Assembly: GCA_032622095.1 (NCBI GenBank)
Contig: CP136061.1
Coordinates: 20,648,991 to 20,712,990 of the forward strand
Direction: 5' to 3'
Length of the DNA stretch: 64,000 bases
DNA from: Siphonodentalium dalli
Taxonomy: Eukaryota; Mollusca; Scaphopoda; Gadilida; Siphonodentaliidae
The position numbers and the translations under genes were made by a program. Position 1 is the stretch's first letter, and each line of letters opens with the position of its first letter. Shown here in pieces: positions 8,720-63,200 of the stretch. The notes beneath the pieces were generated by a model. That model saw only the letters and a list, made by a program, of their open reading frames with translations. It was not told where the DNA came from and did no database searches.

Positions 8720-9426
8720 GTAGATAGAAGAAGTAGTAAGGATAAGAAGACATATGCAGAATCTGAGCAAAGATGGGAATAGTGTAGACTACACATGGGT
8801 GCCTGGTCATATGGATATAGAGGGCAATTAATGAAATGGCCGACACACTTGCCAAAGATGCCTGTGTTACAAAACAATTTACGGCGGTTACAGAGTCAAA
8901 CGAATGTAGTGCAGAACGTGTACCGAAGAGGGAGGCAAATAAAATAATAAAAACTAAGGCAATTGAGAGATGGGACTACAGATACGAATTTGGAGAAGAA
9001 AGGCATATAAATCAGCATATAAATGAAGTTGGAAAAGTGAAGTTTTTCAAAGGGAAGTCGAGAAGAGTTGGAATGATCATCAACCAGCTGATAGCAGGAC
9101 AACATCGATTACTTAGTAGCAGAGTAAAATGGGATAACAACTGCACTACAGATCTGTGTGATGAATGTGAAGAGAGAGAAGACATCAACCATTACATTAA
9201 CAGGTGCAAGAAGTTTGAGAGTGAGAGAGGAGTATTGGAAGAGAGTTACAGAACGATTTTATATGCGGGTGGCGATGAAGAGGTGAGGATGAGGCTACAA
9301 GTGCTTACGGGGAATGACACTGAGATGGAGACAGTACAGAGAAAACAGATGTTAGAGGCTTTCCAATCATACATTATATCTTCCAAACGTTTTGATGGAA
9401 CTGAAAGTACAGTTGTGGCAAACTAA
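8720..9426 (+). pseudogene. Retrotransposon RNase H C-terminus plus zinc-knuckle tail (broken)
   Basis: A second retroelement fragment in the same orientation. It reads TWVPGHMDIEGN, then after a four-base disruption near 8829 (TAAT, bringing in stops) continues NEMADTLAKDA, the active-site end of a ribonuclease H domain. It then runs open to TAA at 9424-9426. The tail holds CDECEEREDINHYINRC, a Cys/His knuckle of the kind found after RNase H in some non-LTR elements. The N-terminal half of RNase H is missing. It may belong to a different element from the upstream reverse transcriptase fragment. Confidence 0.8.
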
Positions 9427-42200: not shown

Positions 42201-45200
42201 TCGGCGACCAAGGTCGCCTCGTGCTATATGGCCACGAAAACTAGCCTCGTCGCGATACATGAATCGTTACAAACACATTGTGTATATAACACATATTTAT
42301 TATGTCTGGTCAGATATAGGGCAAACAAATTTTTTTATTTGAGTCTCAGACAATATATAGACAGAACACAACGCGCATCTTAATCGAGAATCTTTTATCG
42401 AATGAGTTGCGGATGGCCCAAGGATATATTTCGCGAGAGCGTAGCTCGAGCAAAATATAACTTTGCGCCGTCCGCAACGAGTTCGATAAAAGATTCGAGA
42501 TTATGATGCAAGTTGTGTTCTGTATTTATTCTACACCGTTCAGTCAGATAAGTTCAATCCATGAATGTCATATCCATTGTTACTATAGCCACCTTTATTG
42601 TGATTTAAGACTGACAAATAGCCAGTAATTATGGGGGGATCACCGGAAGCGGATGATCGACGTAATGTACGTCATCTTTCTTGGCGACAACGTCAACAAG
42701 AATAGTTCCGGCTTGTATTCCACTAGAGGTATACACTACTATGTATTCAATGGCTGGGATTCCGTTGAATACATGTACCTCACGTCAATGGGTGTGGAAT
42801 AAAAAAGTATACTGATGATTCACATTCACAGGGCACCAATGACCAAATTGACTCGGATGTTTGTAGCCATATAAAGTATAAACTAATTTACCTTCACAGG
42901 GCACCAATGACCAAATTGACTCGTATGTTTGTAGCCATATAAAGTATAAACTAATACATGACCAAACCGACTCGGCTGTGTGTTACATAACAAAATAAAT
43001 TATACTAATTTACCTTCACAGGGCACCAACGACCAGGGTCCGCGCTGGACCGAAATTTACTTTTGCCAAATGAATTTTTTTTTTGCCAAATTCTTTTAGA
43101 ATTTGCCAAATGTTATCCCCGATAGTATCCTTTTCTGCAACAATGATTGGATTTTATGTTTCGACACTCGCGATTTGAAGGACGTTTGATACCCATAGGA
43201 AAGAAGTTCGTTAATAATTATACTCGCATCTCTATTGTGGTTTATCATACAACAATAAACAAATCCCCGATCAATAAAATGGTGGAAGGGTTGCTTCATC
43301 AGAAGGGAATATCACAAGAGGATTAGCCATATAAACACCACCATCACGCTAAATACGGGTAATCCCTCCACCCATCGATACTCATGCTATCAAACTAACT
43401 GCATCTTAATGGAGGTGTTAACTTTTCCGAAACCATATAAAACACCACTAATATAATTCTATTGTAATAGTTTCCTAAAATGAATGGTATTGATTGACCG
43501 ATATTTTTCAACTTTATTGAGGAATTAGTAAGTGACTTGCCAAAACTTTTGCCAAATGAAAATATTTTTTGCCAAATGTGAATTATTTTTGCCATTGGCA
43601 AATTTGGCAAGTGGCAGCGCGAACCCTGCCAACGACCAAATTAACTCGTATGTTTGTAGCCATATAAAGTATAAACTAATACATGACCAAACCGACTCGG
43701 CTGTGTGTTACATAACAAAATAAATTATACTAATTTACCTTCACAGGGCACCAACGACCAAATTAACTCGTATGTTTGTAGCCATATAAAGTATAAACTA
43801 ATACATCACCAAACCGACTCGGCTGTGTGTTACATAACAAAATAAATTATACTAATTTACCTTCACAGGGCACCAATGACCAAACCGACTTGGCTGTTTG
43901 TAACCCGTTTGCAGCATTCTCTTTGATAACTTCTCACTGATTGGATAGACCCTCACAAATAAACTGTGTCTGAACTCCACAAACGGCTTCAGTTTTTTAT
44001 TGAGCTGATATTTCACAATATTGTGTTTTCTTCCACCATCAATTTCCACTCGAGGAATTAGGATTTCTTCTAGTGTTTCCTGAAAAATAAATTTTGATTT
44101 CATTTAGAAACATAATCCTCTCTGAAATAACTTGATAATAAATCATACAGTGAATAATTGTTTAGTTTGTAAACTCATAAATCATGTGGATCTATAATAC
44201 ATTAAGTTCACTGATTGGTCAAAACATGAAATGAACACCAAACATATGTAAAATAAACAATATAGACCTATTAAAGCTAAAATATATAAGGAATTTTAGT
44301 CCCTTTTACAGGGGTGATGAATAAATATACCATGTAATTTATGATGCTTAAAACAATAAATAAATGTTGAGATTTCCTAACATGATTTTGCTTTCATTGT
44401 TATAACTCATATTGTTTTTGCAATGTGCCAGATATTTGAGAAAATTTATATTTCCCCATAATTGTAATTATAGACCTATATAAAGGCTATATTTACGAAC
44501 CTGAACTGACGCTAACTTGTTGAGGTCATTGTCATAGACCTCGTTGATTTCATTTCTGATTCGATCGCTTGCGTCTTCCTCTAACTCTTCCTCCTCTTCC
44601 TCTTCCTCTTCTTCCTCCTGAAAAGAGAGATGCAGTATTTATTACACACATGTTGTATTCTAAGAAAATGTTCCAGTCTATGCTGGTCTATGTGATAATT
44701 TCAACAGTTGGCTCTAGGGCATTCCAGGATTTTCCATTGAGACAAGCGATATATTTGACATTAAGCGGCATAAAAAGAATTACAGAAGTTTGTGATGTCA
44801 AAATGGTCAGCGATTGTCAGGAATAGCTCTGAAAAATATAATTTCAGTTTGAGGAGATTGAAGTCACATAAATGATCAAACAATAATTTTTTTAAATTAC
44901 CTTTTACACTACTAATCCATAATCACAAATATACAAGTTTTAATAATAGATATCTAAGCCCAGTGACAAAACGATTTACCAGAAAATGAGGGAATAAACG
45001 CCGAGACAAAATAGGTCAAATTAAATTAAGTGCAAGTTGTGCAACTGACCTCATAATGACATATGCACATGTTCCCGTGGTGATAGATATCTGTGACAAG
45101 TTTTAGAAAAATTTACCAAAAAATTAATAAATACAAGTTTGAACCAAGTTAAGCTATGGATGGACTGCCTATTAAATGGACAAGCTGATTCCAGTTATGG

Positions 45201-48200
45201 GGGGGGGGGGGGGACAACTAACCTCAAACTCTTCCGCAAGCTGAGCCTCGATATCATCTTCTTCCTCCTCCTCCTCTGCTGCTTCCTCCTCCTCCTCCTC
45301 CTCATCTGACTCACGATTGGTTGCTCGCTCGGCCTGGTGGAACAAATGAAAGTGTCAGTGACACTGTAGCTCAACTTTGAGAGGGGATGTCATACATTAT
45401 GGTCAACAGAGCGATAAGGGATACAGCAAGTTTAAATATTTAAGCAATAACAAAGGTCAAACCTTTTTTGGCATCAATTTTATGAAAAGTGATGGCTGCA
45501 GGGTGTGCTGAAGTATATAGTCATGCAAAGAATATAATCCAAAATGGCCACCAGCAGCCATTTTTTCATCTTCAACTATCAAATTCGATTGCTCCCATCT
45601 AGAGATGATCCTAAACATGCCTGTAAATTTTCAAAACATTTCTCCAATAAATGTGGATTGCAGGGTGTGCTAATGTATTCAAATTTAAAATCCAAGATGG
45701 ATGCTGGCGGCCATGATTTTTAATGAATTTCGGAAAAAAAATCCCATCCAAAGGTCACCCCGAAGATCCATATGAAGTTTGGTGACAATTGTATGAGGGG
45801 TGTGGCCTGAGAGTGTGCCAAAGGAAATTGTTGACGGATGTCAAACCATCAAATTACATGCAATGTACAAGTTAACGCATCTGTATACTCACCAGTCGGT
45901 CTTTCTTTTTCTCCTCTGCATCTTTTGTCAGTTCATCTCTCCTCTTTTGCATAGCAGTATCCTAATGAATAAAGAATTTACAGGTGTTACATTCTCCAGG
46001 AATTTACAGGTGTTACATTCTCCAGGTGAATAAAGAATTTACAGGTGTTACATTCTCCAGGAATTTACAGGTGTTACATTCTCCAGGTGAATACAGAATT
46101 TACAGGTGTTACATTCTCCTGATGAATAAATAATTTACAGGTGTTACATTCTCCAGGTGAATAAAGAATTTACAGGTGTTACATTCTCCAGGTGAATAAA
46201 TAATTTACAGGTGTTACATTCTCCAGGTGAATACAGAATTTACAGGTGTTACATTCTCCAGGTGAACAAAGAATTTACAGGTGTTACATTCTCCAGGAAT
46301 TTACAGGTGTTACATTCTCCAGGCGAATAAATAATTTACAGGGGTTATATTCTCCAGGTGAATACAGAATTTACAGGTGTTACATTCTCCAGGTGAATAA
46401 AGAATTTACAGGTGTTACATTCTCCAGGTGAATAAAGAGTTTACAGGTGTTACATTCTCCAGGTGAATACAGAATTTACAGGTGTTACATTCTCCAGGTG
46501 AATACAGATACAGGTGTTACATTCTCCAGGTGAATACAGAATTTACAGGTGTTACATTCTCCAGGTGAATACAGATACAGGTGTTACATTCTCCAGGTGA
46601 ATAAAGAATTTACAGGTGTTACATTCTCCAGGTGAATACAGAATTTACAGGTGTTACATTCTCCAGATGAATACAGAATTTACAGATGTTACATTCTCCA
46701 GGTGAATAAAGAATTTACAGGTGTTACATTCTCCAGGTGAATAAAGAGTTTACAGGTGTTACATTCTCCAGGTGAATAAAGAATTTACAGGTGTTATATT
46801 CTCCAGGTGAATAAAGAATTTACAGGTGTTACATTCTCCAGGTGAATAAAGAGTTTACAGGTGTTACATTCTCCAGGTGAATAAAGAATTTACAGGTGTT
46901 ATATTCTCCAGGTGAATAAAGAATTTACAGGTGTTACATTCTCCAGGTGAATAAAGAATTTACAGGTGTTACATTCTCCAGGTGAATAAAGAATTTACAG
47001 GTGTTACATTCTCCAGGTGAATAAAGAATTTACAGGTGTTATATTCTCCAGGTGAATAAAGAATTTACAGGTGTTACATTCTCCAGGTGAATAAAGAGTT
47101 TACAGGTGTTACATTCTCCAGATGAATAAAGAATTTACAGGTGTTACATTCTCCAGGTGAATAAAGAATTTACAGGTGTTACATTCTCCAGGTGTTAGGC
47201 CACATGCTTTCTCATATTCAAATACATATCTCTATTATATAGATAATTCTAGCAATGCTGGGGCACAAGATTTTATATAATAAAGCTATGGTAAGCAAAA
47301 ACTAATTCTGCATAAAGATGTTGCTGGTGAATTAGAGATCAATATCTGATGACATACTGAGGAAGTGTAGTAAATTGATGCAAAATGATCATTATGTCAG
47401 ATTTTAAGATGGAAATTTTTTTGGGCGACAAGAAGTCAGGTATGAACAAAGTACGAACATATCGATTATTCAAAGACAATGATATGCACTCACTCAAACA
47501 TATCTTGTGAACGTGAAGAATTTCGAAACAATATTTTGTTTGTAAACTCAGAGTGAGTAATCATTGACTTGAAGTTCAAATAGGCAGACATAGACAACTC
47601 AAAATAGCATACAAATAGGCAGACATAGACAACTCAAAATAGCATACAAATAGGCAGACATAGACAACTCAAAATAGCATACAAATAGGCAGACATAGAC
47701 AACTCAAAATAGCATACAAATAGGCAGACATAGACAACTCAAAATAGCATACGAAAATGTTATGAAAATCAAATTGAGATAGAAAAACATGTGTATTATA
47801 TTGGAGTGCAGGGAGGATCTTTCATTGATATTTCAGACAAATACCCAAATTTCAATATATGAATGAGGTCAATAAATTCATATTTCTTATGAAAAACAAA
47901 AAACGACCATATTTGCGCTACAGTCTATAACATGATCCGGAAATTCTTCAAATCCTGAGAGAGGTTAAAACAATTATTTGTTTAAATGATTATCATATGT
48001 AATTCTATTTTTAAATTTTATATAGATATTGATGTTGCTTGTTTTATGTATGGCATCTTCCCCTCGTGGGGGTATATTGTCAATAAATCATATGTATGTA
48101 CATGTCATGAATCATGCAAGGCCTGAATGGGTCTCTTCAAATCAAGAGTGCTACATACAAGTAATATTTGAGAGATAACTCAGTGATTCTTCCTTTGCTA

Positions 48201-51200
48201 AAAGGGGTAGGGAAACTTAAAATGTTCTCTCTTAACCCTTTCATAATGGGTTAAATACATTAAGTAGCATTAAATACCCTGTGCCAGTGCATTCTCTTAT
48301 ATATGCGAGTCTCCCATAGGGAGCCTCTCATATATAAGAGTATATATATGCACTGGCTTACAAGATCAAGTTAAATATTGTTAGGCCAATGCATTCTCTT
48401 ATATATGTGAGGCACCCTATGGGCGACTCACATTTTAAGAGAATGCATTGGCACAGGGTTTTCACAAATATTTAGGAATCACCAGTCATGGAAGGGTTAA
48501 ATTTCTCACCCTTTTCTGTTTCCTCTTCAATTTCTTTTTCTCCCTCTTTGCGACACGCTTGTCTCTTTTTGATTTCCACTTGTCAAATCTTGGAGGAAGA
48601 AGTCGTGATATGACATCACTGTCTTCGACATTAATGATGAGTGCAGCATCAGGAAACAATCCCAGCTCTTGGACGTATCGTACTTCCTCTGTTGTTCTTG
48701 GGAAGCCTTCCAGGATGAAACCAGTGGATCTGTAAGAATATTATAATTATATTGATACAAACGTGTTATGTAAACCAGTGGATCTGTAACGATATTATAA
48801 TTATATTGATACCAAACCTGAGTTTAGTGTGCCTGTCATTTGCAGCATGAGGTCCCCAGAGGGTGAATTTAGTGACGCTATCCCGCATAGCTGGTTAGCA
48901 TCACCAAATTCACCCCTGGGGATCTCATTCTGCATGGCCTTATCTGCTATGGGAGACATAGATAGAGATTTGAAGTTCCCAAATGGTGAATATTGTGATG
49001 TACACCCATTGGGAACCTTGATTATGATACGTGTCATCTACCAATTTGGTGATAGATATAGAGAAACTAAACTAAAAAAGAAATAGAATCTATGTGAAGA
49101 AGTTTTCATAGAAATTTGATAATAAAAAAATTACAGAGAAGAAGAGGCCTAAGCAGAATGAGGTCCCCAGAGGGTGAATTTAACCCTTTCAGTGCCAGGG
49201 GCCAATCTCATCGGCCCTAAAAAAAATATAAAATAAAAAAACAAAATAAATTTGGTTGAATTTGTTTTGGGTATGCTTAAGCATGCTATAGCGAATTTAA
49301 AAACAAACTGGATAAAACCTTAGGATCATGTTATAACTCAAAACCATCACCAAGTATTCATAGTAATAATTTTTATGCCCATGAAAAACATGATTCCCTG
49401 GCACTAAACCTACAAAATAAGTCTGTTAAAGAATATAAGAAAAAATTATTAAAATTGTAAAAAATTGTAAAAAATAATAACAAATGATGAAAAATTGTTA
49501 GGCCAATGCATTCTCTTATATATGCGAGGCGACCTATGGTCGACTCACATATATAAGAGAATGCATTGGCACAGGGTATATGGGTTGATACAAAAATCGG
49601 ACCTGGCACTGAAAGGGTTAATGGTGCTAGTCACACTAAACTCAGACTTGATTGAGACAAACGTGTTACATATCTAAGATGTCATTACACAATCAAGAAG
49701 AAATAATGCGCATCACTTTAATTAATAAACAAGAGCATTGCTGGGGTGTGGCTCAGCATCGATGGGGTGTGGCTGAATATGCTGTTAATTTACTTGTAAA
49801 GAAATAATTTGTATTCTATCTTAATTGTTATTGATGTATTTGTTGTCTCATATATCAAAATTATCTTGGAAATCTGAAGACACCAGATTTTCTCCCGAGG
49901 ATCAATCTGGGTTATTTAATACCTCCCCGCCCCCCCCCACCCACAAATTATACCTCTATAAATGTACATTATTTCCTCCCGTTGGAACTATTATCAAGCA
50001 TCACTATGGCACTATGTTATCAGGCATCACTATGGTTATCAGGCATCACTATGGTTATCTGGCATCACTATGGTTATCAGGCATCACTATGGTTATCAAG
50101 CATCACTATGGTTATCAAGCATCACTATGGTTATCAAGCATCACTATGGTTATCAAGCATCACTATGGTTATCAAGCATCACTATGGTTATCAGGCATCA
50201 CTATGGTTATCAAGCATCACTATGGTTATCAGGCATCACTATGGTTATCAAGCATCACTATGGTTATCAGGCACCACTATGGTTATCAAGCATCACTATG
50301 GTTATCAGGCATCACTATGGTTATCAAGCATCACTATGGTTATCATGCATCACTATGGTTATCAAGCATCACTATGGTTATCAGGCATCACTATGGTTAT
50401 CAAGCATCACTATGGTTATCTGGCATCACTATGGTTATCAAGCATCACTATGGTTATCTGGCATCACTATGGTTATCAAGCATCACTATGGTTATCAGGC
50501 ATCACTATGGTTATCAAGCATCACTATGGTTATATGGCATCCCTATGGTTATCAGGCATCACTATGGTTATCAGGCATCACTATGGTTATCAAGCATCAC
50601 TATGGTTATCAGGCATCACTATGGTTATCAGGCATCACTATGGTTATCAAGCATCACTATGGTTATCTGGCATCACTATGGTTATTAGGCATCACTATGG
50701 TTATCAAGCATCACTATGGTTATCAAGCATCACTATGGTTATCAGGCATCACTATGGTTATCGGGCATCACTATGGTTATCAAGCATCACTATGGTTATC
50801 AAGCATCACTATGGTTATCAGGCATCACTATGGTTATTAGGCATCACTATGGTTATCAAGCATCACTATGGTTATCAAGCATCACTATGGTTATCAGGCA
50901 TCACTATGGTTATCAGGCATCACTATGGTTATCAAGCATCACTATGGTTATCAAGCATCACTATGGTTATCTGGCATCACTATGGTTATATGGCATCACT
51001 ATGGTTATCAAGCATCACTATGGTTATCAGGCATCACTATGGTTATCAGGCATCACTATGGTTATAGGGCATCACTATGGTTATCAGGCATCCCTATGGT
51101 TATATGGCGTCACTATGGTTATCAGGCATCCCTATGGTTATATGGCATCACTATGGTTATCAGGCATCACTATGGTTATCAGGAATCACTATGGTTATCA

Positions 51201-54200
51201 GGCATCACTATGGTTATCAGGCATCCCTATGGTTATCAGGAATCCCTATGGTTATCTGACATCACTATGGTTATCAGGCATCACTATGGTTATCAGGCAT
51301 CACTATGGTTATCAGGCATCACTATGGTTATCAGGAATCCCTATGGTTATCTGGCATCACTATGGTTATCAAGCATCACTATGGTTATCAGGCATCACTA
51401 TGGTTATCAGGCATCACTATGGTTATCAGGCATCACTATGGTTATCAGGCATCACTATGGTTATCAGGAATCACTATGGTTATCAGGCATCACTATGGTT
51501 ATCAGGAATCACTATGGTTATCAGGCATCACTATGGTTATCAGGAATCACTATGGTTATCAGGAATCACTATGGTTATCAGGCATCACTATGGTTATCAA
51601 GCATCACTATGGTTATCAGGCATCACTATGGTTATCAGGCATCACTATGGTTATCAGGCATCACTATGGTTACCAAGCATCACTATGGTTATAGGGCATC
51701 ACTATGGTTATCTGGCATCACTATGGTTATCAGGCACCACTATGGTTATCAGGCACCACTATGGTTATCAGGAATCACTATGGTTATCAGGCATCACTAT
51801 GGTTATCAGGCATCACTATGGTTATAGGGCATCACTATGGTTATATGGCATCACTATGGTTATAGGGCATCACTATGGTTATAGGGCATCACTATGGTTA
51901 TCAGGCACCACTATGGTTATCAGGAATCACTATGGTTATCAGGCATCACTATGGTTATAGGGCATCACTATGGTTATCTGGCATCACTATGAATGTACTC
52001 ACTTGAAGGGTTCTTTGTTCCACCACTGTGGTACAATGTTATCCATCACCTCAGGAGGCAGTGGCTCCTCTGCTTCAAGGTTAGCTTTAATAGCTTCCTC
52101 GTCTTCAGTAAACTCAACCTCCTCTGGCTCAGCCTGGAGAGATTAATTAATTACTAATTATCGTAACTACTCCAAAATCTTCATAATTAAAATACTTATG
52201 GTCCAACAGCTAAAAGAGCATTGAACCTTAATTAAATAAGAAAATTCAGTGCTATAGTTATTAAAAATATAATTATTAAAAAGATACTGCAATAACTTAG
52301 AATACTATTGTGTTGAGGACTAAAGAAGTTGATGACACATCAAATGTCGGCTCCGGGAAGGACCTTTATCTAAATTCACCCTCTGGAGACCTCATTCTGC
52401 AAATTTCTGGCACCATATTCTCAGGCGTGCCTGCAGGATGTTTGATGTTTGTTTGAAGAATGTTCAGAATATAAATGTTCCTCACCTCTTCGGCATCTTC
52501 AGATTTCTTCTCTGGGATGTTTTCCTCTGTTGACCCATCTACCTTTGTTCCATCTGGATCAGTGATGGCAGCATCCTCATCATCACTGTAAAAAAAAGAA
52601 GAAGAGATTACTGAAAAAAAAAAACATCTTATGAAAAGGGTTAACATGATCACTATGAATGAATGAACAGTATCAAGTGACTGACTACCCATTGGTGAGT
52701 ATTCAAAGGGTTAACAAAATAAGAATTCTAAAGTGACAAAATGACATGACAAAATGGAGTTATCTCCCATGATACTTACGAATCAATCTCTTCCGCCTCC
52801 TCTTCTTCCTGATCCTCCTCAAATTCTGGGCCGATCTTTTTCTTCGTCTTAGCGATGATGAGCTCCTGAAGTCTCTCTTTGAACTGTATATGGAACAGCT
52901 TGTATTTCTTGGCTAGCTGTCGACCGTATGTGGACTTACCAGCACCTTTAGCACCAAGAATGAAGAGACGCAGCGGAGGAGTCTGATGAACAAAAGTAAG
53001 AAATAAGATAGAGAATTACTGTAATATATTTACATAGCACCTCCGTGTTACACTAAATCCTGTTTGGTGACTGGTCAACTGCAAATTGGGTCACCAAGTT
53101 TACATCCCAAAAATGTGAAGAGTGTATCACGAACAGGAAGTGTGGCACAGGATCTTTAAAGCCGCACTAGCGCAGCTCCCGTCATGAAAGAGTTCTATCT
53201 ATCTATCTACATTATACTCCATCGCCCTCAATGTGCTGAGGATTATGTGGAGGTCCAGGTGCTACCACGGCCGAGTAACTTTATAACCATGTGGTGACTC
53301 CATGCAGTAGCGTTCTTTAACGTGCACACACCGAGGCGTGTACACGGGTCAGCCATTAATGTCCGCGCCCGATCGGACAGCGTACTGCACCCACGACAAC
53401 ATACCTGGACAACAACATAAGTGTTCGTAATGGGGGGAAGTCTGCATTTTTGCATTCAGATCTTTATTCAGTGATCTCGAATGAGACTTTTCAGCCTGAT
53501 AAACTTGGTATCTGACCGAGTTCTGATTTTTGTCAGAATACCCTGACCAGGTTACGATCCCCGGTCCGATAGCACGAGAGACCAGTACGCTACCTCTCGG
53601 CCACCGACTTCCCTGGCCACCGACTTCCCTAATTAATCTGCGAGTCAAAAACCAATGATGCCAATTCCAAATGAAGCTCGTTGAGGACATTAGTTAAGTT
53701 AATTAATTTATGAGTGCCGAGATGGAAATGTGAGGGATATACTTCCACCTTCATCAGTATTCTCAACTGATGAAGATTGGTTTACGTCTGTAGAAGACAG
53801 TCAAATGAGGACAGTCAAAAATAATATTATTGTTTGAAATATTCAAAGAGTTTTCGATCTAACATGTTCGAAAATTTCTTCAATTAACCCTTCCATGACT
53901 GGAGCCTCGCATAAATAAGAGAATGCATTGACCTAACAATCATGACCTTGTGAGCCAGTGAGGTCTCTTATATATGGGAGGCTCCCTATGGGAAACTTGC
54001 ATATATAAGAGAATGTACTGGCACAGGATCTCTAATGCTGCACCAGTGCAGCTCCCGTCATGAAAGGGTTAAATATTGGAATTGAACCAATTAAGTAATA
54101 AAAAATTTGCTGGATCATAATCAAGAGATATTCCACAGAGAAGAAAAATGTGAATAATTACCTCAGGAGAGGTGTTCTTTGGTAAGAAATCCTCCGGATC

Positions 54201-57200
54201 ACCCAGAAATTTGTCACGTGTGTCATGAGACGAGAAGTAATAAACCTTCTCTCTGTATTTGGCTGCGATCTCTGGGTTACCCGGATACAGGACATTCGTC
54301 TCCTTCAGACTGACGGGACAGAAATGGTTCGTGTCACCAAGGGGCTTTTTCTTATTCCTCGCTACATCCTCCTCCTAGAATAAAAAATAACACATCCCAA
54401 TAATATAATTATAACAAATCTTCAAAATGTAATGATATACCAACATTACGAAATATCCAATAATTAATAACATGATTTAAAAATCATCACAAAAAAAAAA
54501 AAAATGATATCCCAATATTACGAAATCTCCTATAAATTATAGCAAGATTTTAACATCCTCACAAGTTGATATCTTAGAAACATAATAAATAAAACAACCA
54601 AGCACAATCAATTTCACCTTTAATTTGTTGCAATAACAAATGTTTATAGTATCGCATGATGGATTCAATGAACCATACACCAAACACATCCAAATTTTTT
54701 AATATTATTTATAATTAATTAATTTATAATACCTCCTCCTCTCCTTCCTCTGCCTCTTCCTCGGCGATGTCATTTTCTAAATCCTCATCTTCCTCTTCAA
54801 TATCATTCCCTCCAAACTCCCACCCAGAATGCATGTACTGCTCTGTAAATGAAATCCAAGAATAGTGTAACAAACCTGAATCCCTATCAGTGGCATTGGG
54901 GAGCTGATGGCTAAGAGCATGGTCCCTAAGTCTGCTGGATATAGTGTGTCTGACATTTGCAGAATGAGGTCCCCAGAGGGTGAATTTATTGATGCTACTC
55001 TGCACAGCGGGATAGCTTCAACAAATTCAACCCCTGCAGACCTCAGTCTGCTTAGGCCTCATCTTCTGGGAAGTATCTAAAGTCTCAAATTAACATTGTT
55101 TTAACTTTTTCCCTTCTGTTCTGTTTTTATATGAATAAAATTTCATAATCGATGTGACTAATGGGTGAACATCACCAACTTCAACTGGGGAACTTCAATC
55201 TGATCAGCCGTGCGGGATAGCATCACTAAATTCACCCTCTGGGGATCATATTCTGCAAATGTAGATACACTATTTTCAGACTTGATAGTCACCAATCCCA
55301 TTCAGGCAATCCCCCCACAATCGCCCCAATATACAGCCCTGGGAATTAAGGAAAATTGGCCTAGGCAATATATTTTCCTAGCTGAAAGAAATCGGCCTAG
55401 GCAAAAACAGATTTTACCTAGGCAATTTTGCAACAATATTGCCATCTCAAATCAAAATGATTCAATAATAACCTGAAATGCTTAGTTATTTTGGGGGAAC
55501 ATTATTTCCAGGCCACTACTCAACATATATGTACAAATCCACAAATCATCTCCAAAACAAGTGTCCTTATACCGGGTAGCTAGTTAATGACCCAGTGCCA
55601 TGGAAACAATTGTAGGACGATATATGTAAAGAGTAATTTAAGGAAGTCATTTTGGCTAAAGAGGTTCTATTTCTGATAGACACAAATCAATTTTAGTAAC
55701 CCAATGAACATGTTTTACCTAGGAAATATAATTGCCTAGGCAGACCGATTTTGCCTCTGCTTTTACATAGGCATTGCCTATTGCCTAGGCTAATTCCCAG
55801 GGCTGAATATATACCCTGCATACTACTAAAGATATAACAATCAGTGCTCAAGTAGCATAAAATCTCCCCATTGCATGTTCTTAAACTCTTTTTATTATTA
55901 AGGCGACTAATTGATCATTTGTTTCTCAACTGATAGACAAAACCAATTGAACCCTGCACTCTCCATAGAACACATCCCCACCACACCCTCCCCATAATCA
56001 CAGTTGCTGGGGGTGATGTCAGAAGTTGATCTGATAATTTGCCATATATTCAGTCAAACAAATGCTATCAATTATTATGATCATTAAATATCTTTCTAAA
56101 ATCATCATTGTATATAATAAGAACAAACCATGCCATGAAGACATCAAACATTGGTCATAACATTGTCATTATTCTAGCATCCTTTAAATAATTATATTTA
56201 TTCCACGCCCATCGACGTGAGGCAGAATCCCAGCCATAAATAATACATCTAGTGGAATACAAGCCGGAACTATTCTTGTTTACATTGAAACATGACATAA
56301 TATTCTTGTTTACATTGAAACATGACATAATATTCTTGTTTACATTGAAACATGACATACATATGTCCACAACCTGCTTCAGGTGATGCCCCGATAATTA
56401 CTGGTTATTCATCACTTTAATGAAAATAAAGATAGCATCAATGAATATGACAGTCATGGATTGAACTTATCAGACACAATGGTGTAGAATAAATACAGAA
56501 CACAACTTGCATCATAATCTCAAATTTGTTATCGAACTCATTGCGGATGGCGCATATTTACATTTCACTCTCATGAAATATATCCTTGTGCCAACTGCAA
56601 GTCATTGGATAAAAGATTCTCGATTAAGATGCTCATTGTGTTCTGTCTATATCTATTGAGATTTTATGCTGATTTTCTAATGACTGAGCAATGTAATTAT
56701 CATCACCGTCCAAAGAATTCTCCTCAGTAATTGAAATGAGTTAATTGCTAGGGGAGAGTTTTTAAAATAAGACTTACTTTCCATTGATTTAGTCGTTTCT
56801 TTTGTGACATCCTGAATGGACTTATCATTGATTTCGATGATAACTGGTTCCAGTGATGTGCTGGCGGTAATTGTCCCGTATATATTAGTGTAGTCCTTCT
56901 CATAAGAGACTTTAAAATAAGACTTACTTTCCATTGATTTAGTTGTCTCCTTTGTGACATCCTGAATGGACTTATCATTGATTTCGATGATAACTGGTTC
57001 CAGTGATGTGCTGGCGGTAATTGTCCCGTATATATTAGTGTAGTCCTTCTCATAAGAGACTTTAAAATAAAACTTACTTTCCATTGATTTAGTTGTCTCC
57101 TTTGTGACATCCTGAATGGACTTATCATTGATTTCGATGATAACTGGTTCCAGGGATGTGCTGGCGGTAATTGTCCCGTATATATTAGTGTAGTCCTTCT

Positions 57201-60200
57201 CATAAGAGACTTTAAAATAAGACTTACTTTCCATTGATTTAGTTGTCTCCTTTGTGACATCCTGAATGGACTTATCATTGATTTCGATGATAACTGGTTC
57301 CAGTGATGTGCTGGCGGTAATTGTCCCGTATATATTAGTGTAGTCCTTCTCATAAGAGACTTTAAAATAAGACTTACTTTCCATTGATTTAGTTGTCTCC
57401 TTTGTGACATCCTGAATGGACTTATCATTGATTTCGATGATAACTGGTTCCAGTGATGTGCTGGCGGTAATTGTCCCGTATATATTAGTGTAGTCCTTCT
57501 CATAAGAGACTTTAAAATAAGACTTACTTTCCATTGATTTAGTTGTCTCCTTTGTGACATCCTGAATGGACTTATCATTGATTTCGATGATAACTGGTTC
57601 GAGTGATGTGCTGGCGGTAATTGTCCCGTATATATTAGTGTAGTCCTTCTCATAAGAGACTTTAAAATAAGACTTACTTTCCATTGATTTAGTTGTCTCC
57701 TTTGTGACATCCTGAATGGACTTATCATTGATTTTGATGATAACTGGTTCCAGGGATGTGCTGGCGGTAATTGTCCCGTATATATTAGTGTAGTCCTTCT
57801 CATAAGAGACTTTAAATAAGACTTACTTTCCATTGATTTAGTTGTCTCCTTTGTGACATCCTGAATGGACTTATCATTGATTTCGATGATAACTGGTTCC
57901 AGTGATGTGCTGGCGGTAATTGTCCCGTATATATTAGTGTAGTCCTTCTCATAAGAGACTTTAAAATAAAACTTACTTTCCATTGATTTAGTTGTCTCCT
58001 TTGTGACATCCTGAATGGACTTATCATTGATTTCGATGATAACTGGTTCCAGTGATGTGCTGGCGGTAATTGTCCCGTATATATTAGTGTAGTCCTTCTC
58101 ATAAGAGACTTTAAAATAAAACTTACTTTCCATTGATTTAGTTGTCTCCTTTGTGACATCCTGAATGGACTTATCATTGATTTCGATGATAACTGGTTCC
58201 AGTGATGTGCTGGCGGTAATTGTCCCGTATATATTAGTGTAGTCCTTCTCATAAGAGACTTTAAATAAGACTTACTTTCCATTGATTTAGTTGTCTCCTT
58301 TGTGACATCCTGAATGGACTTATCATTGATTTCGATGATAACTGGTTCCAGTGATGTGCTGGCGGTAATTGTCCCGTATATATTAGTGTAGTCCTTCTCA
58401 TAAGAGACTTTAAAATAAAACTTACTTTCCATTGATTTAGTTGTCTCCTTTGTGACATCCTGAATGGACTTATCATTGATTTCGATGATAACTGGTTCCA
58501 GGGATGTGCTGGCGGTAATTGTCCCATATATATTAGTGTAGTCCTTCTCATAAGAGACTTTAAATAAGACTTACTTTCCATTGATTTAGTTGTCTCCTTT
58601 GTGACATCCTGAATGGACTTATCATTGATTTCGATGATAACTGGTTCCAGTGATGTGCTGGCGGTAATTGTCCCGTATATATTAGTGTAGTCCTTCTCAT
58701 AAGAGACTTTAAAATAAGACTTACTTTCCATTGATTTAGTTGTCTCCTTTGTGACATCCTGAATGGACTTATCATTGATTTCGATGATAACTGGTTCCAG
58801 TGATGTGCTGGCGGTAATTGTCCTGTATATATTAGTGTAGTCCTTCTCATAAGAGACTTTAAAATAAAACTTACTTTCCATTGATTTAGTTGTCTCCTTT
58901 GTGACATCCTGAATGGACTTATCATTGATTTCGATGATAACTGGTTCCAGTGATGTGCTGGCGGTAATTGTCCCGTATATATTAGTGTAGTCCTTCTCAT
59001 AAGAGACTTTAAAATAAGACTTACTTTCCATTGATTTAGTTGTCTCCTTTGTGACATCCTGAATGGACTTATCATTGATTTTGATGATAACTGGTTCCAG
59101 GGATGTGCTGGCGGTAATTGTCCCGTATATATTAGTGTAGTCCTTCTCATAAGAGACTTTAAATAAGACTTACTTTCCATTGATTTAGTTGTCTCCTTTG
59201 TGACATCCTGAATGGACTTATCATTGATTTCGATGATAACTGGTTCCAGTGATGTGCTGGCGGTAATTGTCCCGTATATATTAGTGTAGTCCTTCTCATA
59301 AGAGACTTTAAAATAAAACTTACTTTCCATTGATTTAGTTGTCTCCTTTGTGACATCCTGAATGGACTTATCATTGATTTCGATGATAACTGGTTCCAGG
59401 GATGTGCTGGCGGTAATTGTCCCGTATATATTAGTGTAGTCCTTCTCATAAGAGACTTTAAAATAAGACTTACTTTCCATTGATTTAGTTGTCTCCTTTG
59501 TGACATCCTGAATGGACTTATCATTGATTTTGATGATAACTGGTTCCAGGGATGTGCTGGCGGTAATTGTCCCGTATATATTAGTGTAGTCCTTCTCATA
59601 AGAGACTTTAAAATAAGACTTACTTTCCATTGATTTAGTTGTCTCCTTTGTGACATCCTGAATGGACTTATCATTGATTTTGATGATAACTGGTTCGAGT
59701 GATGTGCTGGCGGTAATTGTCCCGTATATATTAGTGTAGTCCTTCTCATAAGAGACTTTAAAATAAGACTTACTTTCCATTGATTTAGTCGTTTCTTTTG
59801 TGACATCCTGAATGGACTTATCATTGATTTCGATGATAACTGGTTCCAGTGATGTGCTGGCGGTAATTGTCCCGTATATATTAGTGTAGTCCTTCTCATA
59901 AGAGACTTTAAAATAAAACTTACTTTCCATTGATTTAGTTGTCTCCTTTGTGACATCCTGAATGGACTTATCATTGATTTCGATGATAACTGGTTCCAGT
60001 GATGTGCTGGCGGTAATTGTCCCGTATATATTAGTGTAGTCCTTCTCATAAGAGACTTTAAAATAAGACTTACTTTCCATTGATTTAGTTGTCTCCTTTG
60101 TGACATCCTGAATGAACTTATCATTGATTTCGATGATAACTGGTTCCAGTGATGTGCTGGCGGTAATTGTCCCGTATATATTAGTGTAGTCCTTCTCATA

Positions 60201-63200
60201 AGAGACTTTAAAATAAGACTTACTTTCCATTGATTTAGTTGTCTCCTTTGTGACATCCTGAATGGACTTATCATTGATTTCGATGATAACTGGTTCCAGT
60301 GATGTGCTGGCGGTAATTGTCCCGTATATATTAGTGTAGTCCTTCTCATAAGAGACTTTAAAATAAGACTTACTTTCCATTGATTTAGTCGTTTCTTTTG
60401 TGACATCCTGAATGGACTTATCATTGATTTCGATGATAACTGGTTCCAGTGATGTGCTGGCGGTAATTGTCCCGTATATATTAGTGTAGTCCTTCTCATA
60501 AGTTTTCAGTTTCTCTTTGAATTCCTCCATCTCTGGCCCCTCTGGTAGTTTCTCCTGTAAACAGCGAACAATGACAAGGTTCGTACACATTTCTCAAAGT
60601 GAAATCCCAGTACTTTTCCAGTACAATTCAAGTATTATGGACCAAATATCTAGTAAATTTTCAGACATGTTAATATGTTTTATATAATATAGATCAAAAT
60701 TGAAACCAAAGAGAAGTTGAATCTTAGAGAACATTAATACCAGATACTTATTTCCAGTGCTATAAAAATAATGTATGACTTTTTCAGTATTTTCAAGTAT
60801 CACTGAAAAAATGTAAATTTGTCCAAGTTTTAAAGAACCTAGAATTCCTAAATGTTAATTTTCCAGTTTCCAGGATAGGTGTATGGACCCTACAATGAAT
60901 TGGAATCATGTGAAGCTGGTCCTGATATTGGGCACTGATATAATGAGTTTACACACACCATATGCCATTGTCTTTTGTCACAATCAATGACTAACCATCT
61001 TCATAAAATATTGATGGGCCTAACAGCATCATAAAAGAAACTGGTAAATATTCTATGAGAAATTGTTATTGGACTTCTTACACAGGCCTCAAAATATGGT
61101 GCCAGACATTTTAAGAATAATCTTGAGGTCCGCAGAGGGTGAATTTAGTGCAGCTACCCCACACAGCAGGCTTGCATCCCTAAATTCATCCTCTGGAGAC
61201 CTCATTTTGCATGGCTTCATCAGCTATGGGAGACTTAGACAAAGATGGTAAAGATAGTTATATGCACCCATTTGGTGCCTCGATTATGCATTGAGTCATC
61301 TGCCAATTTGGGGATAAACAGAAACTAAACTTAAAAAAGAAAAAGTATCTTTTTAAAGAAAATAAATACATGTTAATTTAATTTGATAATAAGAAACTTT
61401 CCAGAGGACATGAGGCCTAAGTAGAATGAGGTCCCCAGAGGGTGAGTTTAGTAATGCTAGCCAGCTATGCAGGGTAGCGTCACTGAATTCATCCATTGGG
61501 GACATCATTCTGCAAATTTCTGGCACCTTGCAGTCACCAAGAATGAACAATAAAAAATCTATCTCAGGCTTCATGCCTTGTAATTGGGAGCAATGCTTTA
61601 TTTGAAACAAAAAAAACTGTTCTGCTATTCAAGCAGTATATATGCAGATAATTTATAGAATCCCAACAGATATAATACACATGTATATATGTCACCATTT
61701 TAAATGACTTAACCCTTTCAGTGCCAGGGGCCGATCTCATCGGCCCTAATTTACGGTTTGTAAAATCAGCTGTAAAAAAAATATTTTTTTGGGGTTGAAT
61801 TATTTTTGGGTATGTTTAAGCATGCTATAGCGAATTTAAAAACAAACTGGATAAAACCTTAGGGGCATGTTATAACTCAAAACTATCACCAAGTATTCAT
61901 AGTAATAATTTTGATGCCCATGAAAAACATAAGATTCCCTGGCACTAAACCTACAAAATAAGTCTGTTAAAGAATATAAGAAAAAATTATTAAAATTGTA
62001 AAAAATAATAACAACTGATGAAAAATTGTTAGGCCAATGCATTCTCTTATATATGCGAGGCGACCTATGGTTGACTCGCATATATAAGAGAATGCATTGG
62101 CACAGGGTATATGGGTTGATACAAAAATCGGACCTGGCACTGAAAGGGTTAAACAATATTCATTTTCAGTCATTAAATTAATTGTTCATAATCAACAGAC
62201 AATGTTATAGGGACCCACGGCACTCACAATGGGTAAATGTGCAAAAACATAAGTCTGTAAAAACATCACAAAGAAGTACATGGAGAAATAAATAAACTTT
62301 TATCTTTTATTCATTAATGATAGTTCTCCAATAACGAAATTTTGCGTGTTAAAACCATTGTTATGTAAACTAAACTGTTACAGTGATTTGTCAACAAACA
62401 TCGCTAATCGTGTAGTAAGTTCAAATCTTTTTGTCTGAATATGATTTTCAGGTTGTTTTTCAATGATTTGACCTTTTCCAATGTTTACCGTCAAGTTTTT
62501 ATTAAACTTTGTTATCTTATTGGACTAATTGGACTTTTATTGGTAATTTCACTGTAACAGTAATGATTACATAACAATAGTTTTGATAAGATAATTTTTT
62601 TTATGCAAATTGTCGTCTTGTTAATGGAGAGTTATTAATGATGAAAATAAGAACAAAATCAATCTATTTTTGCATGTATTTGTAGTTTTACAGACTTTTA
62701 TCAAATTTATGTTATATTGGATTAACACTTTGCCGGAACCCTATAGTGTAACATTCCAGGGTGCCAACTTTATATTATGTATTAAATATGTAGATAGCAC
62801 CATATAACCACCCACAAACTCCAAAACCAGGCATGTATCAGCTTGGATCACATAAAAGCATGGCATAAACGCTCTACGAGATAAATTTTGACAAATACAA
62901 TCTTACATGTGTGATCGTGCTAATTAAAAATTGATGTCTAATATTTAAATACATGAATTAACTCGTTATTCTTGAGTGCAGAATGTTAAGGGCTTTTGTG
63001 GATCTTATCATAAAATGCCAATTCAGATGGCACAACGGAGTTATGGGCCAATGCGTTAGTATAACCATACTTTCTGCCCAAATTAGTTTGCTTTATTACA
63101 GAGATGCAGTGGCACCACCCACCCCACATACATGTATATCTTTTGAGCTTCCTAAGATGGTTGAAATCATGATTACATCAAAGTACGAGATAACTCGTAG

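What the first reader, a model, noticed from the sequence alone, without database searches (positions are those of the whole stretch)
56778..60522. An AK9 exon end and its 5' splice site are amplified into 25 near-identical 150-bp units
The repeated unit is not random intron. It begins inside coding sequence, runs through the exon end and the GT donor, and stops 18 bases into the intron. The pre-mRNA therefore offers 25 consecutive identical 5' splice sites after one acceptor. The unit length is a multiple of three and the 18 intronic bases are an open frame, so reading through one unit adds exactly 50 residues. This could be an evolving coding repeat, a splice-site choice that changes protein length, or a burden tolerated because the first donor wins. 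I know of no described case of this in AK9.
Basis: partly seen in the sequence, partly recalled or inferred. Interest (0 to 1): 0.85.

Follow-up and report, generated by a model that had tools for sequence, protein, structure and literature searches.

The report
Exon tails amplified into intron satellites
In this animal genome the end of an exon together with its splice signal has been copied 25 times in a row into the neighbouring intron, and the same has happened at roughly one in ten other exons examined, most likely as a nearly harmless by-product of repeat growth because the cell keeps using the first splice signal.

Summary
The array is real: 25 head-to-tail units at 56755-60500, minus strand, 98.3% alike; 21 of 150 bp, 4 of 149 bp. 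Each unit holds 127 bp of exon end, the donor AAA|GTAAGT (25 of 25) and 22-23 bp of intron, not 18. The gene is AK9. Donor 1 joined to the acceptor at 54842 rebuilds single-copy AK9. Donors 2-9 would each add 50 residues in frame; donors 10-25 give a stop. A coding repeat is disfavoured; use of donors 2-9 cannot be excluded without RNA.

It is not unique. Three further AK9 exons have their end plus donor copied likewise. Among 95 kinesin exons, 10 have a tandem array spanning the 5' splice site, 12 counting looser copies. Donors lie in arrays about as often as the local array density predicts; strict acceptor-spanning arrays are fewer (2 of 95), a contrast that fades when two-copy duplications are counted. 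Best reading: in a minisatellite-rich genome, duplications across a donor are tolerated because the first donor is used. There is no RNA evidence.

The parts
60374..60554 (-). AK9 exon (181 nt); its last 127 nt are the exonic part of unit 1; donor GTAAGT follows 60374
   Evidence: AK9 homology
56755..60500 (-). tandem array of 25 units (21 x 150 bp, 4 x 149 bp), each 127 bp exon end + 22-23 bp intron with donor AAA|GTAAGT
56755..56904 (-). unit 25, the last unit before unique intron: AA instead of GT at unit positions 145-146; the bases CT at both outer breakpoints suggest a local tandem duplication as the first event (inferred)
   Evidence: sequence
54733..54842 (-). next AK9 exon (110 nt); acceptor just before 54842
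43861..44079 (-). second AK9 exon whose end plus donor is copied into its downstream intron
42801..43905 (-). copies of that exon end with donor GTAAAT after 43739, 43014 and 42892, one copy with a changed donor near 42830; TRF arrays 43629-43884 (122 bp) and 42818-42955 (68 bp)

Best explanation
A tandem duplication that began inside the exon and ended just past the 5' splice site put an extra exon end and donor into the downstream intron. Because splicing keeps using the first donor (the one that makes a normal 181-nt exon), the copy was intronic and nearly neutral. It then grew and was homogenised like any minisatellite, by unequal exchange and conversion, to 25 units. This genome is dense in such arrays, and wherever one happens to span a donor it gives the same picture. 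Shown: array, unit anatomy, AK9 identity, exon found at one locus, frame outcome of each donor, recurrence at other exons, mosaic unit haplotypes. Inferred: use of the first donor, neutrality, the duplication route.
For: One copy of the segment scores 132.1 bits (whole sequence) against AK9 chain 9d2f_A with best stretch 4-164; a version with one extra unit scores 123.6 bits and its best stretch starts at residue 87. 16 of 25 donors give a stop in the joined pair. Recurrence: 4 of 27 located AK9 donors lie inside TRF arrays; 10 of 95 kinesin exons by TRF, 12 of 95 adding the self-BLAST copies L048 and L083. In the two kinesin introns where I joined the next exon, donor 1 rebuilds the motor core and donor 2 lowers the Pfam score: 106.4 to 95.4 bits (L055) and 77.8 to 46.9 bits with a frameshift (L067). 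In 14 of 15 arrays read-through stops within 295 nt. Donor coverage is near background: 10 of 95 against 8.6% (P 0.46), 4 of 27 against 21.4% (P 0.49). The place of the junction in the first unit is compatible with uniform in the 14 TRF-defined arrays (KS P 0.68), so no sign of targeting. Four-gamete pairs among unit variants show exchange or conversion.
Against: No RNA was available: first-donor use is not observed. All 25 donors are intact. In the exonic part 6 of 9 variable sites are synonymous against 24% expected (P 0.008; 0.062 if one linked block counts once), which may mean that units have been coding or are fed from the coding unit. A reference title seen (Krainer 1990: SF2 activates proximal 5' splice sites) is a reminder that competing donors can favour the intron-proximal one. 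The strict donor-acceptor contrast (10 against 2 of 95, P 0.03) could also be read as a preference for donors.
Confidence: 0.8

Rival explanations
1. Donors 2-9 are used to some extent, so AK9 is made in forms longer by multiples of 50 residues (an evolving coding repeat or a splice-choice length polymorphism).
For: Donors 2-9 keep the AK9 frame without a stop; synonymous excess in the exonic part.
Against: The two AK9 chains in the PDB align to one copy; four units break the frame; in the other 14 arrays checked the frame stops within 295 nt; the exon would grow from 181 to 331-1381 nt.
Confidence: 0.08
2. 5' splice sites (or transcribed exon ends) are preferred birthplaces of tandem arrays in this genome, for example through R-loops or co-transcriptional breaks.
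For: Exon-tail arrays at 4 of 27 AK9 donors and 10 of 95 kinesin donors; strict acceptor-spanning arrays at 0 of 31 and 2 of 95.
Confidence: 0.08
3. The array of strong donors is kept as a regulatory device (U1 binding that blocks premature polyadenylation, or decoys that tune splicing).
For: 25 of 25 donors intact; L057 keeps GT in 36 of 37 units found.
Against: In the larger 53-bp AK9 array 106 of 140 units found lack the motif GGTAA, 99 of them through one shared variant; invariance of a nine-base motif in a 98%-identical array is expected anyway (inference).
Confidence: 0.03
4. Assembly artefact (falsely expanded array).
For: Copy number cannot be checked without reads.
Against: Units carry distinguishing variants with no clear period at lags 1-12; a 30-bp exon-tail array of a kinesin gene is seen, in part, at three separate genomic places.
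Confidence: 0.03

Closest known systems
Intronic minisatellites / VNTRs (class named from recall)
   Same: head-to-tail units, high identity, mosaic variants, inside an intron
   Different: the unit spans a coding exon end and its donor, so each copy carries a full 5' splice site
Intron gain by tandem genomic duplication, reviewed in PMC3443670 (passages seen)
   Same: local tandem duplication that copies splice-site sequence within a gene
   Different: there an exonic AGGT segment is duplicated and a new intron arises; here a donor is copied into an existing intron and the unit has no AGGT
Human introns from tandem arrays (Zhuo et al. 2007; title seen in reference lists only; paper not held)
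   Same: by its title, tandem arrays linked to introns
   Different: not compared, because the paper could not be read
Coding tandem-repeat exons (recalled)
   Same: open frame of 50 codons per unit up to donor 9
   Different: frame broken in units 9, 13, 15 and 18; the AK9 chains compared have one copy

Membership tests
Minisatellite (tandem array) | many near-identical head-to-tail units | tested here: met
Minisatellite (tandem array) | copy number varies between individuals | not testable with these tools
   one assembly only
Intron gain by tandem genomic duplication | a duplicated exonic AGGT supplies new donor and new acceptor | tested here: not met
   no AGGT in the doubled consensus unit; junction is AAA|GTAAGT; the copies lie between the first donor at 60374 and the next exon at 54842
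Intron gain by tandem genomic duplication | a new intron is spliced in the transcript | not testable with these tools
   no RNA data
Coding tandem repeat | unit length a multiple of three and open frame throughout | tested here: not met
   4 of 25 units are 149 bp; read-through from the exon start ends after 664 residues
Coding tandem repeat | repeat present in mature mRNA or protein | not testable with these tools
   no RNA or proteome data
AK9 gene | homology to AK9 along the protein | tested here: met
   main stretch on chain residues 819-1643; upstream exons on 153-364 and further stretches; a 71-residue AK9 exon has one match in the genome

The most novel reading that the evidence does not exclude
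In this lineage the 5' splice site is a systematic growth point of introns: about one exon in ten carries an exon-tail array, so introns lengthen by copying their own donor, and the surplus donors are a reservoir from which new isoforms (here AK9 longer by 50-residue steps) can be recruited at once.
Probability: 0.12. Interest if true: 0.8.

Novelty: new variant of a known kind. Interest (0 to 1): 0.55.

Why it matters
It offers natural experiments on an old question: when a pre-mRNA has many identical 5' splice sites in a row, which one is used? In a small sample I found 14 TRF-defined cases with from 2 to about 140 copies, in native genes; many more probably exist in this genome (inference). 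If first-donor use holds, exon definition or order of synthesis outweighs proximity to the acceptor. It also shows a way in which introns grow and leave exon-like debris that gene predictors could take for coding repeats.

Tried and rejected
Mobile or dispersed unit: not found; 25 genome matches, all in the array. Second AK9 gene as backup: a 71-residue AK9 exon has one match. Coding repeat: rejected for donors 10-25. Targeting of donors: not supported. Protein-kinase and myosin family searches were run to find an exon sample but not used: 95 of the 135 listed kinase matches lie in one gene cluster, and many myosin matches look like recent paralogues.

Donor-acceptor contrast, all counts: first 11 against 3 of 95 (P 0.048; this mixed TRF and BLAST on the donor side only). 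TRF only: 10 against 3 of 95 (P 0.08). With two-copy duplications found by self-BLAST: 12 against 8 of 95 (P 0.48), 12 against 6 of 93 with paralogues collapsed (P 0.21), 15 of 121 against 9 of 126 with AK9 (P 0.20). Array coverage next to the coding match is 9.5% on the donor side and 4.2% on the acceptor side (first 20 bases). I treat the contrast as suggestive.

Papers: searches returned none; some searches returned papers of which I saw the listings (47: 15 of 25, 63: 7 of 9), none with a title or abstract start about exon-tail donor arrays. Passages only were seen of PMC3443670, PMC3151243, PMC1877881, PMC2586383 and PMC8724738.

Sample limits: kinesin rows 1-95 of 123 were fetched in list order; rows 96-123 were not, for lack of letters. 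Matches with stops inside were kept. Exon edges in the kinesin set are approximate except at the arrays inspected. Of 32 listed AK9 exons 27 donors and 31 acceptors were placed by script; one acceptor was placed on a duplicate 54 bp upstream of the true one at 48729, which is itself an acceptor-side two-copy duplication.

Full report
What is there. On the minus strand 25 units follow each other from 60500 down to 56755. Mean identity between units is 98.3%. Unit positions 1-127 equal the end of the exon 60554-60374; positions 128-150 are intron, GTAAGTCTTATTTTAAAGTCTCT. 21 units are 150 bp and 4 are 149 bp (units 9, 13, 15, 18). The nine-mer AAAGTAAGT is the same at 25 of 25 donors. Unit 25 passes into unique intron and differs at two bases near its end, and the two outer breakpoints share the bases CT; from this I infer a small tandem duplication as the first event.

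The gene. The exon and its neighbours match AK9 chains in the Protein Data Bank: E 2.7e-37 for the array exon, the 54842 exon and the next one, E 7.6e-234 for 892 residues stitched from exons inside the window (main stretch on chain residues 819-1643), E 2.7e-78 for 549 residues from exons upstream of the window. Chain 9d2f_A is named Adenylate kinase 9; the other chain, 9fqr_Xf, carries the name CFAP276 in the listing although it aligns throughout in the same way. The listing gives no species. An AK9 exon of 71 residues has one match in the genome, so no second AK9 was found.

What each donor would give. Joined to the exon at 54842, donor 1 gives a 181-nt exon and the AK9 frame. Donors 2-9 keep the frame and add 50 residues each. 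Donors 10-25 lead to a stop in the joined pair: 16 of 25. Unspliced read-through ends after 664 residues. Against 9d2f_A the one-copy joint scores 132.1 bits with best stretch 4-164; a two-copy version scores 123.6 bits with best stretch 87-214.

It is not alone. Self-BLAST of 19 window exons (or exon-like regions) and 15 upstream ones showed the same layout at the exon ending 43861 and, in 70 kb fetched upstream, at two more: the exon ending at extended coordinate 116901, with an 89-bp unit, and the one ending at 110556, with a 53-bp unit of which 140 copies were found in two blocks. Extended coordinates continue the window: 64001 is the first base of L001. By script 4 of 27 located donors and 0 of 31 located acceptors lie inside TRF arrays; TRF arrays cover 21.4% of the 134 kb. 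One acceptor, at 48729, has a two-copy duplication that TRF does not list.

A sample not chosen for repeats. I took kinesin-motor exon matches in list order (rows 1-95 of 123), 60 with 3 kb and 35 with 1.4 kb. TRF arrays span the 5' splice site at 10 of 95: L017, L038, L055, L057, L062, L067, L071, L080, L085, L095, with 4 to 72 exon bases in the array (L017 is the one with 4). L048 and L083 carry further donor-side copies found by self-BLAST. TRF units of the ten run from 30 to 95 bp, up to 38.9 copies (L057). On the acceptor side TRF arrays span the junction at 2 of 95 (L088, L100); in L055 an array ends exactly at the AG and in L084 two bases short of it. Exon-start duplications upstream of acceptors by self-BLAST: L076, L077, L078 (paralogues), L089 and, weakly, L087. 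Tandem arrays cover 8.7% of the first 180 kb and 8.5% of the second 49 kb. So donors are hit about as often as expected from array density (10 of 95, P 0.46); acceptors may be hit less, but the contrast depends on the criterion.

Why I think the first donor is used. In L055 and L067 I could join the next exon inside the fetched piece. Donor 1 gives a continuous kinesin core (SKITRLLKDSLGGNAKT in L055, LGGDAKAALFVNCSPAD in L067); donor 2 inserts ten residues in L055 and shifts the frame in L067; Pfam scores fall from 106.4 to 95.4 and from 77.8 to 46.9 bits. This is indirect evidence from homology, not from RNA.

How it grew. Unit variants form four-gamete combinations (51/70, 51/134, 54/70), so units have exchanged sequence. 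The one-base loss is shared by four non-adjacent units, so amplification did not respect the frame. The 30-bp kinesin array is seen at three places: 14 units in L055, 7 each in the parts held in L076 and L077, whose pieces begin inside the array; L078 overlaps L055 and is the same locus.

What does not fit. Six of nine exonic variable sites are synonymous, three of them a linked block in successive codons shared by units 1, 5 and 25. One reading is that new units are fed from the first, coding unit or from another allele of the exon. Neither decides between neutrality and function.

Relation to the literature. The nearest described process is intron gain by tandem genomic duplication (PMC3443670, passages), which uses a duplicated AGGT and makes a new intron; the unit here has no AGGT and its copies lie inside an existing intron. 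A study of competing splice sites (PMC1877881, passages) shows that elements placed between competing donors change the choice, so order alone cannot be taken for granted. None of the listings I saw described exon-tail donor arrays (searches, open-access library only).

Noticed in passing
window 50010-51991 and 52004: A 19-bp array of about 104 copies begins 13 bp after the donor of the AK9 exon 52133-52004 without including the donor.
   Followed up: partly
window 45974-47194 and 45961; 54387-54564 and 54374; extended 86703-87452 and 86672: Arrays end 13, 13 and 31 bp upstream of three AK9 acceptors without spanning them.
   Followed up: partly
window 48718-48812, minus strand: The end of an intron, its AG and 12 bases of the AK9 exon starting at 48729 are present twice, 54 bp apart.
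   Followed up: partly
G000:C2:149826753-150592734: 95 of the 135 listed PF00069 matches lie in this stretch of about 0.77 Mb, most as near-identical 281-residue kinase frames.
   Followed up: no
G000:C9:207472778-207587422: 12 of the 19 listed ADK matches lie on one strand here, perhaps a multi-domain adenylate kinase gene other than AK9.
   Followed up: no
window 56755-60500, unit positions 105, 108, 111: Three synonymous differences in three successive codons separate units 1, 5 and 25 from the other 22.
   Followed up: partly
L088, L100, L089, L076: Acceptor-side counterparts: intron end and/or exon start duplicated upstream of the real acceptor.
   Followed up: partly
window 8821-9423, plus strand: 201-residue open frame that from recall resembles the RNase H end of a retroelement; not searched.
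   Followed up: no
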